Below, piece by piece: positions 185 through 4,148 of a stretch of 44,648 bases of DNA (within the stretch, counting starts at the first letter, position 1; each line of letters begins with the position of its first letter). The notes beneath the pieces were generated by a model that had not been told where the DNA came from, ran no database searches, and worked only from the letters and a program-made list of their open reading frames with translations. A program made the position numbers and the translations under genes. Source of the stretch: Kocuria rosea (GTDB lineage: Bacteria; Actinomycetota; Actinomycetes; Actinomycetales; Micrococcaceae); the NCBI RefSeq assembly GCF_023715525.1, contig NZ_JAMBOG010000024.1:1-44648 (forward strand). Direction: 5' to 3'.

Positions 185-356
185 TAGTAGGGTGGTGAGT
201 CCCGTCACACAATCGGGCTCGCCGACAGGGGCCCCTGCCCCGCTCCCGGCCTCGAGGCGCCGGCGTTGCACCGGGGATGGGCCCGGCGGGCACGGCAGGG
301 CCGCCGGTGGTGTCCCTAGAATGAACCGCACCCGTCCGTCCCCTCAGGAGCTGCCC

Positions 357-1070
357 GTGCCCGCGGCCTCACGCACGTACACCGTCGTCCTCGACTGGCT
401 CGAGGAGCGGCTGCGCTCCGGGGAGATCTCGGTGGGCGACAAGCTGCCGGGGGAGCGCCAGCTCGCCGAGGAGTTCGCCATCTCCCGCGCCTCGGTCCGG
501 GAGGCGATCCGCATCCTCGACGCCATGGGCCTGGTCCGGTCCTCGACCGGCTCGGGGCCCAGCGCCGGGGCCATCGTCATCTCCGAGCCCTCCGCGGCGC
601 TCGCCTGGGCCCTGCGGATGCACGTGGCCACCCGGTCCCTGCCCGTGCGGGACCTCGTCCAGACCCGCCTGCTGCTCGAGACGCAGTCGGCACGGGAGGC
701 GGCCGCCGCCCCCGACACCCCGGAGCGCACGGCCACCCTTGAGCACGCCGCCGCCCTGGTCGCGGCCATGGACGACCCCGGCCTGCCGGACGAGCGCTTC
801 CACGCCCACGACGCCGAGTTCCACGTGCTGCTGTCCTCGCTGGCCGGCAACCTGGTGGTCGGGACGATCATGTCCTCGCTGCGCCAGGCCACGATCGGCT
901 ACGTGCAGGAGACCGTCGCGCGCCTCGAGGACTGGCCCCGGGTGCGCCGCACCCTCCAGCAGCAGCACCACGAGATCCTCCGGGCGTTCCGGGAGCGGCG
1001 GAGCGAGGACGCCGCGACGGCGCTGCGGGAGCACATCACGTGGTTCTTCGGCCTGAGCGGCAACGGCTGA
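357..1070 (+). CDS. lldR: FadR-family GntR regulator, probable lactate repressor
   Basis: This is a 237-residue transcription factor. A winged helix-turn-helix comes first (DKLPGERQLAEEFAISRASVREAIRIL), then an all-helical FCD ligand domain with metal-type residues in HAHDAEFHVLL and further His near the end. LldR/LutR members bind lactate and release lut/lld operons. It is divergent from lutA with an LldR-type operator between. I chose GTG 357 because AGGAG (346-350) sits 6 bases before it and TAGAAT (317-322) is a good -10 box. The in-frame ATG at 321 overlaps that box and has no ribosome site. The lactate assignment rests on context, as FadR-type ligands vary. Confidence 0.8.
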   Translation: MPAASRTYTVVLDWLEERLRSGEISVGDKLPGERQLAEEFAISRASVREAIRILDAMGLVRSSTGSGPSAGAIVISEPSAALAWALRMHVATRSLPVRDLVQTRLLLETQSAREAAAAPDTPERTATLEHAAALVAAMDDPGLPDERFHAHDAEFHVLLSSLAGNLVVGTIMSSLRQATIGYVQETVARLEDWPRVRRTLQQQHHEILRAFRERRSEDAATALREHITWFFGLSGNG

Positions 1071-1473: not shown

Positions 1474-2151
1474 TTAGAGATCCCGCAGCTGGGGGTCCAC
1501 GAGCCCGCTCTGGTACGCCTTGATCAGCGCCTGCACGCGGTCCCGCACGCCGAACTTCTCGCACACCCGGCCGAGGTAGGCCTTCACGCTGCCCTCGGAG
1601 ACATGCATCTGCTCGGCGATCTCCCGGTTGCTGAGCCCCTGCGCGAGGAGGGAGACGGTCTCCATCTCCCGCTCGGTGAGCAGGGACCGCAGGCCGTCGT
1701 CCGCCGGCCGCTGCTGCTGGTCGGGGACCGAGATGACGTTGTCGGCGAGCGCCCGGGCGATGGCCGGGGACAGCGCGATCTCGTTGTCGAGCACCTGGTG
1801 CACCGCCGTGATGATCTCGTCGGGCCGGGCGTCCTTGACGAGGTAGCCGGCGGCCCCCGCACGCAGGGCGGGCACGACGAACTCCAGGGTCGAGAACGTG
1901 GTGAGCGCCAGGACCTTGGACCGGGGACTGCTCCGGGTGATCTCCCGGGTCGCCTCGATCCCGTCCATCACGGGCATCTTCATGTCCATCAGCACCACGT
2001 CCGGATCCGAGGCGCGGCACCGGTCCACGGCCTCACGGCCGTTCGCCGCCGTCCCGATCACCTCGAACCCCGGCTCGGCGGAGAAGAAGGACTTCAGGGC
2101 CTCCAGCATCAGCGGCTGGTCGTCCACGACGAGCACTCTGCAATCTGTCAC
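1474..2151 (-). CDS. NarL/FixJ-family response regulator
   Basis: This is a 225-residue two-component regulator. The receiver domain covers roughly residues 4-120 with the acidic pair D10-D11, phospho-acceptor D56 (VVLMDMKMP) and Lys in GYLVKDARPDE. A LuxR-type helix-turn-helix follows at about 155-215 (LTEREMETVSLLAQGLSNREIAEQMHVS). The partner is the kinase encoded divergently at 2578-3810, whose HisKA_3-type core is the usual match for NarL regulators. The start GTG at 2151-2149 has no Shine-Dalgarno. The minus-strand TAGACT (2163-2158) ends 6 bases before it, so the mRNA is probably leaderless. Target genes are inferred: most simply the peptide operon and its own gene. Confidence 0.93.
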   Translation of the reverse strand: MTDCRVLVVDDQPLMLEALKSFFSAEPGFEVIGTAANGREAVDRCRASDPDVVLMDMKMPVMDGIEATREITRSSPRSKVLALTTFSTLEFVVPALRAGAAGYLVKDARPDEIITAVHQVLDNEIALSPAIARALADNVISVPDQQQRPADDGLRSLLTEREMETVSLLAQGLSNREIAEQMHVSEGSVKAYLGRVCEKFGVRDRVQALIKAYQSGLVDPQLRDL

Positions 2152-2152
2152 T

Positions 2153-2290
2153 TCTGCAGTCTATTTTTCGATGCGCCTACATGCGCAACACGACGTCCCC
2201 ATATCTGCAGTGCGTCATCTTCGACTTAAGTCACAAAAGGACTGGACAAAGGTGAATGGACCCCTTTGGTTCACTTTGGCAAAGTAAAGG
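2153..2290. promoter_or_regulatory. Divergent control region with dyads and repeats
   Basis: This is an unusually AT-rich stretch between the regulator and the peptide gene. TCTGCAGT occurs at 2153-2160, overlapping the regulator -10 box, and again at 2204-2211. GACTTAAGTC (2223-2232) is a perfect palindrome. CAAAGG/CCTTTG (2247-2252 with 2263-2268), GTGAA/TTCAC (2252-2256 with 2270-2274) and the palindrome ACTTTGGCAAAGT (2273-2285) form overlapping dyads. These are candidate regulator sites. I could not fix a convincing -35/-10 pair for the peptide gene. Confidence 0.5.
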
Positions 2291-2391
2291 ACAGCAGGAC
2301 AGCACACCCCCCTCGGCAGGGACACCTCTCCCCCACGGTCCCCGCCATCCCCCCGATCCGGTGCCGTCCGCGACCTTCATAGGAGCCCCCC

Positions 2392-2547
2392 GTGAGCAAG
2401 AAGAAGCTGACCACCGCCATCGCGTCCGTCACCCTCGCCGCTTCCTTCATCATCGCCCCCGTCGCCCCCGCGACCGCCGGCCCGATGATCAACGTCAACA
2501 TGGGTCCCCGCGCCACGATCTGCTACTACGTGCCCTTCTGGTGCTAG
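2392..2547 (+). CDS. Exported small peptide ending CYYVPFWC, candidate signal
   Basis: GTG 2392 is preceded by AGGAG (2381-2385) with 6 bases between. The 51-residue product starts MSKKKLTTAIASVTLAASF, a textbook signal peptide with three lysines, a hydrophobic core and the cleavage-type end APATA before Gly30. The remaining 22 residues start GPMINVNMG and end with CYYVPFWC, the last Cys being the C-terminal residue. Two cysteines around six mostly aromatic or hydrophobic residues suggest a disulfide ring. The gene lies 30 bases before a membrane histidine kinase on the same strand and is divergent from a response regulator, so an extracellular signal for that kinase is the simplest reading. 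No RiPP maturation enzyme is nearby. I do not recognise a family. A bacteriocin is the main alternative. Confidence 0.7.
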   Translation: MSKKKLTTAIASVTLAASFIIAPVAPATAGPMINVNMGPRATICYYVPFWC

Positions 2548-2577
2548 TCCCCCGGGCCCTGTGCTACACCTCTTTGG

Positions 2578-3810
2578 GTGAGCGCCATAACTGAAACCCC
2601 GCAGCGAGCACCGCGCACAGCCGAGAAAAGTTCGTTCTTCTACGCCGAGCCCCTGGCCCGGTGGCTGAGCACGGTGCTCCTGCTGTTCGCGGTCTTCGGC
2701 GCCATCGACGACCTGCGGAACCTGTTCCAGGGGTGGTTGAACGGCTCCATCCACACGGCCGACAAGGAGGAGGCGCTCGACAGCATCCTCGCCTTCGCCG
2801 CGATCGGCATGCTCGCCACGCGCGCGCCCTGGGCCTCCCTCGTCTCCATCGGCTGCCTCGCGTTCTCGTGGCACATCGATGAATACCCCATGGCTGCGCT
2901 CAGCACCTGCATGGTCACCGTCGCCGTCGTGGCCACGGCCACGCGCCGCTTCATCGCCGTCCACCTGACCGTCTATGGCGTATGGATCGTGCTGTCGTCG
3001 CTCAAGCACCCCGACGACTCGATCATCTTCTGGAGCCTGATCGCAGTCACGATGGCCGGCGCGCTCATCGGCGCGGCCGTGCGGTACTTCCGGACCCAGC
3101 GGCGGCGCAGCGAGGAGCGGGTCCGGGACCTCGAGGTCCTCAACGAGCGCCTGCGGGAGGACGAGCGCCAGGCACTGGCCCGCGACCTGCACGACGTCGT
3201 CGCCCACGAGCTGACCCTCATCACGATGCAGACGATGAGCCGCCGGCGCTCCGGGGACGTCTCGGAGCTGCACCAGGTCCTCGAGACCGTGGAGGGGGCC
3301 GCCCGCTCGGCGCTGCACGAGCTGCGGGTCCTGCTGCGGCTGCTGCGCAACGAGAACGACGGCGACCACCCGCGCGACGTCACGGGGGCGGGCCTGTCGA
3401 TCGGCAGCCTCGAGCACGTGGTGACGTCCCTGGCGGGCAGCCTCAAGGACCTGCGCTTCGACCCGCAGGTGGTGATCACCGGCGACATCGAGTCCGCGCC
3501 CACCACGGTGCGGGGCACGGCCGCCCGCATCCTGCAGGAGGCGGTCACCAACATCATCAAGTACGCCCCCCGCGGCGCGGTGGTCGGCATCGAGGTGACG
3601 GCCGACGCGCAGGAGCTGAGCCTGGTCGTGCGCAACCCCCTGCCCCGGTCCGGCACCGGCAGCCGCTCCTCCGAGCTGTCCTCCGGGCTGGGCCTGCGCG
3701 GGATCACGGAGCGCGTGTCCCTGCTGGGCGGGCAGGCCGAGAGCGGGCCCCGGGACGGGCACTGGGTGCTGTCGGTGTGCCTGCCGGTGAACGGCAGCGA
3801 GGCCCTGTGA
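2578..3810 (+). CDS. Multi-pass membrane histidine kinase, NarL-partner type
   Basis: The product has 410 residues. The N-terminal 170 residues hold about six hydrophobic segments (near 28-46, 68-80, 86-98, 106-122, 124-141, 149-170) with short loops and no large extracytoplasmic domain. A coiled linker leads to a HisKA_3 dimerisation helix with phospho-acceptor H205 (ARDLHDVVAHELT), then an ATPase domain with N-box LQEAVTNIIKYAP and G-box SSGLGLRGITERVSLLGG. Polytopic sensors with little outside the membrane often read small hydrophobic or peptide ligands, and the exported peptide gene lies immediately upstream. The start is GTG 2578. Its ribosome site is weak, so coupling to the peptide transcript is likely. 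The stop overlaps the atl start by GTGA. Confidence 0.93.
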   Translation: MSAITETPQRAPRTAEKSSFFYAEPLARWLSTVLLLFAVFGAIDDLRNLFQGWLNGSIHTADKEEALDSILAFAAIGMLATRAPWASLVSIGCLAFSWHIDEYPMAALSTCMVTVAVVATATRRFIAVHLTVYGVWIVLSSLKHPDDSIIFWSLIAVTMAGALIGAAVRYFRTQRRRSEERVRDLEVLNERLREDERQALARDLHDVVAHELTLITMQTMSRRRSGDVSELHQVLETVEGAARSALHELRVLLRLLRNENDGDHPRDVTGAGLSIGSLEHVVTSLAGSLKDLRFDPQVVITGDIESAPTTVRGTAARILQEAVTNIIKYAPRGAVVGIEVTADAQELSLVVRNPLPRSGTGSRSSELSSGLGLRGITERVSLLGGQAESGPRDGHWVLSVCLPVNGSEAL

Positions 3811-4148
3811 GCTCACTGGTCGAGCGCGTCGCGGCGGTCGTCGCGGCGATCCCGGCGGGGCGGGTGCTGAGCTACGGGGACGTGGCCGAGCTGGCCGAGT
3901 GCCGTTCCGCCCGCGCCGTGGGCACGGTCATGGCGCGCAACCCCACCGGCGCGGCCCTGCCCTGGTGGCGCGTGGTGGACCGGGACGGCGTCCTGGCCGA
4001 CCACCTGCAGGCCGAGGCCCGCCGGCGCTACCGCGACGAGGGCACCCCCCTGCTCGAGGACGACCGGCACCTGGTCCGCGTCGACATGGACCGCGCCCGC
4101 TGGAGCCCGGACCCCGGCGCCGGGATTGATCCCGGGAGGGCTCAGTAG
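3807..4148 (+). CDS. Alkyltransferase-like protein (ATL, MGMT-type fold)
   Basis: This 113-residue protein is like the C-terminal DNA-binding domain of O6-alkylguanine-DNA alkyltransferase (GRVLSYGDVAELAECRSARAVGTVMARNP). The active-site PCHRV motif reads PWWRV (residues 52-56), so the acceptor Cys is replaced by Trp. That marks ATL proteins, which bind alkylated guanine and hand it to nucleotide excision repair without transferring the alkyl group. GTG 3807 overlaps the kinase stop (GTGA), implying translational coupling, although a functional link to signalling is not evident. The 3' end overlaps the convergent purC by 7 bases. Confidence 0.88.
   Translation: MSSLVERVAAVVAAIPAGRVLSYGDVAELAECRSARAVGTVMARNPTGAALPWWRVVDRDGVLADHLQAEARRRYRDEGTPLLEDDRHLVRVDMDRARWSPDPGAGIDPGRAQ

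What the first reader, a model, noticed from the sequence alone, without database searches (positions are those of the whole stretch)
1474..3810. Unrecognised exported-peptide / membrane kinase / response regulator cassette
Seen: a GTG-started 51-codon gene with a good ribosome site encodes a signal peptide plus a 22-residue tail ending CYYVPFWC. It sits 30 bases before a six-helix histidine kinase with no extracellular domain and is divergent from a NarL-type regulator. Known: Gram-positive peptide quorum systems use the same kit (small exported peptide, polytopic kinase, regulator), but agr-type systems need AgrB/AgrD and a LytTR regulator, which are absent here. Inferred: a Sec-exported, disulfide-closed autoinducer peptide with a HisKA_3 kinase. 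I know of no described family with this tail.
Basis: partly seen in the sequence, partly recalled or inferred. Interest (0 to 1): 0.87.

Follow-up and report, generated by a model that had tools for sequence, protein, structure and literature searches.

The report
Secreted looped-peptide signalling cassette in actinobacteria
In Kocuria and related bacteria a tiny, probably exported peptide with two cysteines at its tail sits beside a membrane sensor kinase whose sensing half varies along with the peptide, which looks like a previously undescribed way for these bacteria to talk to their own kind.

Summary
In detail: a 51-codon GTG gene (2392-2547) encodes a signal peptide plus a 22-residue tail ending CYYVPFWC, 30 bases before a six-helix HisKA_3 kinase and divergent from a NarL-type regulator. 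It is not an isolated oddity. Such a peptide ORF lies directly upstream of 46 of 60 kinases in one branch of HisKA_3 kinases and of 0 of 81 outside it, in Kocuria, Micrococcus, Citricoccus, Nesterenkonia, Piscicoccus, Raineyella and Arachnia among others. In window-type loci the regulator and kinase core are conserved while loop and membrane sensor vary; kinases with 94-98% identical cores can have 37-44% identical sensors. Such allelic mosaics mark peptide pherotype systems (agr, ComQXPA). A second group (A2) shows no loop-sensor link beyond relatedness. No AgrB match in the genome; no modification enzyme recognised beside the cassette. Best reading: a Sec-exported, disulfide-closed autoinducer read by its neighbouring kinase, working like ComQXPA or agr but a member of neither. 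Secretion, disulfide and kinase activation are unshown; regulated genes are unknown.

The parts
1474..2151 (-). NarL-type response regulator, divergent from the peptide gene
   Evidence: Response_reg 1.2e-30, GerE 6.4e-17; 89-98% identical among seven orthologous Kocuria loci
2152..2391 (+). divergent promoter region; blocks conserved in all seven closest loci: AGTCRC, CTGGACAAAGGT (2242-2253) and TTGGCA (2276-2281); a regulator site and a -35 element are proposals only
   Evidence: alignment; position
2381..2385 (+). ribosome-binding site AGGAG, six bases before GTG
   Evidence: AGGAG present in all seven loci
2392..2547 (+). prepeptide gene, 51 aa, GTG start
   Evidence: homologues
2392..2478 (+). 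predicted Sec signal peptide, 29 residues ending PATA (cleavage site placed by eye)
   Evidence: sequence; hydrophobic core and AxA motif
2479..2544 (+). predicted mature 22-residue peptide (follows from that cleavage site)
2521..2544 (+). C-terminal loop CYYVPFWC; Cys44, Pro48 and Cys51 invariant in 17 aligned relatives
2578..3810 (+). HisKA_3 sensor kinase, 410 aa
2659..3087 (+). six-helix membrane sensor (about residues 28-170; the end of the sixth helix is an estimate), the variable half of the kinase
3190..3192 (+). codon of the predicted phospho-acceptor His205 in LARDLHDVVAHELT
   Evidence: H205 invariant in 21 rows

Best explanation
A three-gene peptide-pheromone system. The 51-residue precursor is exported by Sec and cut after its signal peptide (inferred). 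The two C-terminal cysteines of the roughly 22-residue product close into an 8-residue disulfide loop outside the cell, using the general VKOR/DsbA oxidation machinery (inferred). The loop is recognised in the membrane by the six-helix sensor of the neighbouring kinase (inferred from co-variation). The kinase phosphorylates the divergently encoded NarL-type regulator, which probably feeds back on the shared promoter and controls other genes (inferred; targets unknown). Alleles of loop plus sensor form specificity groups (pherotypes) that recombine onto conserved kinase cores (the mosaics are shown for kinases; cognate specificity is inferred).
For: Peptide ORF upstream of 46 of 60 kinases in one branch and 0 of 81 outside (uniform scan). 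A regulator like the window's is found divergent and upstream in 42 of the 46 peptide loci; the rest are two upstream on the same strand (L025, L127), one about 3 kb downstream (L116) and none seen in L118 (seven of the 42 are printed 'none' by the script because the open frame runs on, but lie on the minus strand upstream). At least 24 of 27 same-genus genomes carry such an ORF, and eight genomes (seven of that genus, one of another) carry two different cassettes, each peptide beside its own kinase (counted). Signal peptide kept while the mature part differs: L007/L009 pN 0.02 against 0.44; within one loop type the mature part is constrained: L011/L012 pN 0.02, pS 0.29. Same loop in different backgrounds: P0005 has the window's first 31 residues (bar the start codon) with loop CKWWPVFC, also in P0007 and L009. 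Among nine window-type kinases same-loop pairs have 66-99% identical sensors, different-loop pairs 37-64%; partial correlation sensor-loop given core 0.73, 1 of 2000 permutations as high. Mosaics: P0034/L011 sensor 0.37, core 0.97; P0036/L007 0.44/0.98 while P0036/L009 0.83/0.82; P0028/L011 0.41/0.94. Exactly two Cys after the signal peptide in 45 of 46, an AxA motif near the end of the hydrophobic core in 39 of 46 (a loose test). Own genome has one VKOR and one Thioredoxin_4 (DsbA-like) match.
Against: No experiment. 14 of 60 branch kinases have no such ORF (one at a contig edge, one probably misplaced in the tree), including a second kinase of the window's own genome (L003). In group A2 (12 kinases) the loop does not correlate with the sensor beyond relatedness (partial r 0.03, 801 of 2000 permutations). 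In group A1 the contrast is strongest against L006 and L007; among L008-L012 different-loop pairs have mature pN only 0.10-0.32 and sensor pN 0.23-0.33, and in most pairs with L008 or L010 the signal peptide differs too (pN up to 0.33). Near-duplicate rows (L007/P0031, L011/L012) help the correlation. The Cys pair was part of the search pattern, so the Cys count is partly circular outside groups A1/A2. Peptides of the mosaic kinases P0028 and P0036 were not seen. A co-fold of peptide and kinase gave mean pLDDT 37-46 over the first 40 residues, no information. Some loops (CQAFGRC, CQVAGRC) are little hydrophobic.
Confidence: 0.77

Rival explanations
1. Membrane-held accessory peptide: the signal peptide is not cleaved and the Cys-pair tail acts in the same cell on the kinase, as a small connector protein (in the manner of MgrB on PhoQ) or as a redox or envelope sensor subunit.
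For: Small ORF beside a kinase, single N-terminal hydrophobic segment, two extracytoplasmic Cys; co-variation with the sensor would also be expected.
Against: AxA-type motif near the end of the hydrophobic segment in 39 of 46 (loose test in Ala-rich sequence); alleles of sensor swap on nearly identical cores, which suits social specificity groups better than a private subunit; the loop varies where a redox subunit would not need to.
Confidence: 0.13
2. Bacteriocin-like peptide: a secreted antimicrobial loop peptide whose producer senses it through the adjacent kinase (immunity or dose control).
For: Short, hydrophobic, Cys-closed exported peptides are common among bacteriocins and lantibiotic systems combine toxin and signal (both recalled).
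Against: The two flanking genes of the window are a GntR/FCD regulator and a DNA_binding_1 protein, not immunity or export genes; reading other loci by eye I recognised no shared gene beyond the three; matched sensor alleles would not be required.
Confidence: 0.06
3. Chance or mis-called ORF.
For: Short ORF in high-GC DNA with long overlapping frames.
Against: Single-sequence search finds it at E 1.4e-19 to 1.8e-10 in four other genomes and weakly at the kinase in many more; AGGAG conserved in seven of seven close loci; codon pattern; 0 of 81 control kinases. The profile hits in 19 of 27 same-genus genomes (E below 1e-12) include the 17 rows it was built from.
Confidence: 0.01

Closest known systems
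ComQXPA of Bacillus (ComX pheromone, ComP HisKA_3 kinase, ComA regulator)
   Same: HisKA_3 polytopic kinase with its regulator (ComA as NarL-type is recalled), small precursor gene directly before the kinase gene, variable peptide C-terminus and variable kinase N-terminus (PMC4008528, abstract and passages seen: ComP carries PF07730; the C terminus of ComX is its most variable part; none found outside Firmicutes).
   Different: ComX is modified on a Trp by the isoprenyl transferase ComQ (PMC4008528 passages). Here the precursor has a signal peptide, a Cys pair and no Pfam match, and no transferase was recognised beside it; the regulator is divergent.
agr (AgrBDCA) of staphylococci
   Same: Cyclic peptide read by a transmembrane kinase; hypervariable alleles spanning agrB, agrD and agrC (PMC10482373, passages seen).
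   Different: Needs AgrB (no match in the window's genome); thiolactone, not disulfide; LytTR regulator (recalled) versus GerE here; the kinase here is HisKA_3.
ComCDE/Blp-type systems of streptococci
   Same: Secreted peptide plus kinase plus regulator with pherotypes (pherotypes: PMC5629823, search listing only).
   Different: Double-glycine leader and ABC exporter (recalled); none recognised beside the window cassette.
MgrB-PhoQ
   Same: Small membrane protein with two extracytoplasmic Cys acting on a kinase (recalled).
   Different: MgrB stays in the membrane and does not form swapping alleles (recalled).

Membership tests
ComQXPA | HisKA_3 (PF07730) polytopic sensor kinase | tested here: met
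ComQXPA | NarL-type (GerE) response regulator beside it | tested here: met
ComQXPA | ComX-family precursor (PF05952) | tested here: not met
   Pfam scan of the peptide: 0 families at E 0.1
ComQXPA | ComQ isoprenyl transferase gene adjacent | tested here: not met
   the two flanking genes scanned are a GntR/FCD regulator and a DNA_binding_1 protein; genes further out were not scanned
agr | AgrB peptidase | tested here: not met
   PF04647 search of the own genome: no match; no control genome passed the family cut-off
agr | AgrD precursor family | tested here: not met
   no Pfam or NCBIfam match of the peptide
agr | LytTR-type regulator | tested here: not met
   the adjacent regulator carries GerE; the rest of the genome was not searched for LytTR
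peptide pherotype system (works-like) | variable alleles joining peptide and sensor on a conserved core | tested here: met
   for window-type (A1) kinases; not seen in group A2
peptide pherotype system (works-like) | extracellular peptide activates the kinase | not testable with these tools
   needs supernatant mass spectrometry and a reporter
MgrB-like connector | uncleaved membrane anchor | tested here: inconclusive
   AxA motif in 39 of 46 leans to cleavage; no dedicated predictor or experiment
bacteriocin cluster | dedicated immunity or export genes adjacent | tested here: inconclusive
   two flanking genes of the window scanned, neither fits; other loci read by eye only

The most novel reading that the evidence does not exclude
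A whole, undescribed class of actinobacterial pheromone systems in which a plain Sec-exported, disulfide-closed loop peptide needs no dedicated maturation enzyme or exporter, is read by a six-helix HisKA_3 kinase, and exists as pherotype alleles that move between species by swapping the peptide-sensor block onto conserved kinase cores.
Probability: 0.63. Interest if true: 0.92.

Novelty: new variant of a known kind. Interest (0 to 1): 0.85.

Why it matters
The two-component peptide quorum systems described in the sources that I saw are chiefly Firmicute ones: a 2014 census found comQXPA-like loci in no other phylum (PMC4008528, abstract), while a pathway-database survey reports parts of known systems elsewhere, such as most Nis proteins in actinobacteria, agr in alpha-proteobacteria and ComP-ComA in deinococci (PMC8895600, passages). 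A self-contained peptide-kinase-regulator module in Micrococcaceae, Dermatophilaceae and Propionibacteriaceae would give these bacteria a testable private language, with simple chemistry (a disulfide loop that can be made synthetically) and natural sensor chimeras ready for specificity tests.

Tried and rejected
Regulon by promoter motif: CTGGACAAAGGT occurs exactly three times in the own genome, plus eight places with one mismatch. The two other exact copies precede what read by eye like paralogous short membrane-protein ORFs, within a more symmetrical repeat CTGGACAAAGGTCTA, so the motif was not used as a regulon marker. Co-fold of mature peptide and kinase as one chain: mean pLDDT 37-46 over the first 40 residues, no information. 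PDB fold search of the kinase model: 698 matches at E 10, the 50 listed are led by DesK (1.6e-9); the listed titles name kinases or related signalling proteins, and I saw none that I could assign to the membrane sensor. Class-wide search with the sensor profile: 235 of 394 genomes match at E 1e-22; I read upstream regions of only six places (L003, L228, L229, L230, L244, L232), of which L229 has a peptide (CSYYPDWC); the others I presume to be general HisKA_3 kinases. Correlation of loop and sensor in group A2: none beyond relatedness. A wider swap test with the kinases next to P0005 and P0007 was not possible; the last protein search used a strict cut-off (1e-80), scored only 8000 candidates and may have dropped them. 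Ten paper searches of an open-licence PMC library: among the papers listed (6 to 20 per search, out of up to 469 found) I recognised none describing such a cassette; subscription papers are not held. Passages, not whole papers, were seen of PMC4008528, PMC8895600, PMC13220807, PMC10482373 and PMC9659744; the others as search listings.
Full report
What is there. The window (G000:C17; genus Kocuria by its named protein relatives) carries a 51-codon GTG gene at 2392-2547 with AGGAG six bases upstream, a 410-residue kinase at 2578-3810 and a NarL-type regulator at 1474-2151 on the other strand. The peptide reads MSKKKLTTAIASVTLAASFIIAPVAPATA | GPMINVNMGPRATICYYVPFWC (cleavage placed by eye). It matches no Pfam or NCBIfam family. 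AlphaFold2 (21 aligned kinases, mean pLDDT 82.7) gives six membrane helices with 2-4 residues between them, then a kinase core whose best-ranked solved structure is DesK.

Relatives. A protein search found seven proteins (the window's own included), and a profile search of 5.8 billion proteins found 26, Kocuria and hypothetical or uncharacterised wherever a source names them. A search of 59 related genomes with the kinase and with the peptide showed small ORFs beside the orthologous kinases. Reading the 23 highest-scoring best-of-genome kinase loci (L006-L028, the window's included) gave a signal-peptide ORF with a C-terminal Cys pair directly upstream in 23 of 23; of all 30 loci that one search gave, 25. 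Type A, matched in 19 of 27 same-genus genomes by a profile built from 17 of these loci, has invariant Pro26, Pro39, Cys44, Pro48 and Cys51 in 17 aligned rows: C-x3-P-x2-C. At least 24 of 27 same-genus genomes have a cassette of some type (counted); of the other three, the one locus read in G020 (L075) has none, and no locus of G019 or G026 was read. Eight genomes (G001, G002, G003, G011, G014, G017, G021 of the genus and G029 of another) have two different cassettes.

Named relatives. A scan of one genome per species returned the best 80 kinase loci. 21 of 80 carry the ORF directly upstream, 12 of them Kocuria or Micrococcus records that I treated as repeats of loci already read; L115 has one whose Cys pair is not at the very end. 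They include Raineyella antarctica (..LVMCYYLPWLC), Arachnia propionica (CSTPFFHLFCRQ), [Pseudopropionibacterium] massiliense (CGYFLYLFCR), Citricoccus (CGFWGFFC), Nesterenkonia (CYVFDRFFRNC), Micrococcus (three loci) and Piscicoccus (CELVPIFCS).

One kinase branch. A quick maximum-likelihood tree of 69 kinases has a split of 37 (35 with the ORF) against 32 (none), SH-aLRT 95. Enlarged to 141, the split is 60 (46 with) against 81 (none), SH-aLRT 91 on each side; the label needs 11 changes on this tree, against 38.9 for shuffled labels. No bootstrap was run and several rows are long. Misses in the 60: L001 (long branch, probably misplaced), L003, L071, L075, L120, L123, L124, L125, L126 (contig edge), L128, L130, L133, L228, L230. 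A uniform automatic scan gave 43 of 59 against 0 of 81, with 79 of 2800 resampled regions positive and 3 of 59 against 0 of 81 on the opposite strand (three technical misses explained; L120 looks spurious by eye).

Anatomy of 46 peptides. Loop lengths: 6 residues in 31, 5 in 7, 7 in 4, 8 in 1, 9 in 3. Pro stands at loop position 4 in 25 of 46, at least one aromatic in 42 of 46, an AxA motif near the end of the hydrophobic core in 39 of 46 (loose), and exactly two Cys after the signal peptide in 45 of 46. The scan pattern demanded a C-terminal Cys pair, so the Cys figure is partly built in outside groups A1 and A2. A regulator like the window's lies divergent and upstream in 42 of 46 loci, upstream on the same strand in two, about 3 kb downstream in one, and was not found in one (with seven printed 'none' reassigned by their coordinates). 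Beyond the three genes I recognised no shared neighbour when reading 16 loci by eye. The own genome has one VKOR and one Thioredoxin_4 match and no AgrB match.

Selection and mosaics. In the seven closest loci (A1) the regulator is 89-98% identical and the kinase core 80-95%. Same-loop pair L006/L007: mature pN 0.14, sensor pN 0.19. Different-loop pairs with L006: mature pN 0.46-0.62, sensor pN 0.37-0.43, signal peptide pN 0.12-0.33. L007/L009: signal peptide 0.02, mature 0.44. L011/L012, same loop: mature pN 0.02 with pS 0.29. Weaker: different-loop pairs among L008-L012 have mature pN 0.10-0.32 and sensor pN 0.23-0.33, and in most pairs with L008 or L010 the signal peptide differs as well. 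Sensor pS exceeds core pS (L008/L011 0.52 against 0.20), but so it does in the same-loop pair L006/L007 (0.50 against 0.33), so this alone does not prove recombination (all). Across 21 kinases the sensor-loop correlation given the core is 0.46 (0 of 2000 permutations as high); in the nine A1 kinases 0.73 (1 of 2000); in the twelve A2 kinases 0.03 (801 of 2000), a negative result.

In 25-column windows P0034/L011 runs at 0.28-0.56 through the sensor (one further window reads 0.00 over a gapped stretch), 0.72 over the linker and 0.96-1.0 from there on; P0028/L012 behaves alike, 0.24-0.64, 0.60, then 0.84-1.0. P0005 joins the window's first 31 residues to the loop CKWWPVFC found in L009 and P0007.

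Mechanism. Shown: the genes, their linkage, the conserved loop frame, the selection pattern and the kinase mosaics. Inferred: Sec export and cleavage, disulfide closure, binding to the membrane sensor, phosphorylation of the divergent regulator, feedback on the shared promoter (blocks conserved in seven close loci). Unknown: the regulated genes. A hypervariable region spanning agrB, agrD and agrC is described for agr (PMC10482373, passages), and for ComQXPA the C-terminus of ComX and the N-terminal domain of ComP are variable (PMC4008528, passages).

Comparison. It works like ComQXPA and agr. It fails defining tests of both: no ComX family match and no ComQ recognised beside it; no AgrB match, no AgrD family match, a GerE instead of a LytTR regulator. 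I therefore rate it a new variant of a known kind, peptide-pheromone two-component signalling. In the listings of ten searches of an open-licence library I recognised nothing like this cassette; that library lacks most subscription papers.

Noticed in passing
G000:C4:103767-104486 (L003): The window's own genome holds a second kinase of the peptide-linked branch (E 7.3e-51 to the sensor profile) without a recognisable Cys-pair ORF; a response-regulator frame follows it on the same strand, and the ORF just before it ends without a Cys pair.
   Followed up: partly
L135, L147 (type C cassettes, Kocuria): Type C cassettes (LLCQYYGRCSR) lie next to what reads by eye like a UDP-GlcNAc 2-epimerase gene, a possible hint at an envelope or polysaccharide output.
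   Followed up: no
L013-L018, L020-L024 intergenic regions: In group A2 only a few tens of bases seem to separate the divergent regulator and peptide starts, with GATCATAARC in all 11 aligned loci, so the genes may be transcribed without leaders.
   Followed up: no
G000:C14:20542, G000:C29:5485 (L186, L188): Two short membrane-protein-like ORFs, apparently paralogous, each preceded by CTGGACAAAGGTCTA, an operator-like repeat.
   Followed up: partly
L075, L120, L123, L130, L133: Branch kinases without a neighbouring peptide (a Kocuria, Austwickia, two Arthrobacter, a Rothia MAG): possible listeners, or systems with an unlinked or Cys-free peptide.
   Followed up: partly
window 252-1070 and 3807-4148: Flanking genes: a GntR/FCD regulator and a DNA_binding_1 (alkyltransferase-like) protein whose GTG overlaps the kinase's TGA stop.
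   Followed up: no
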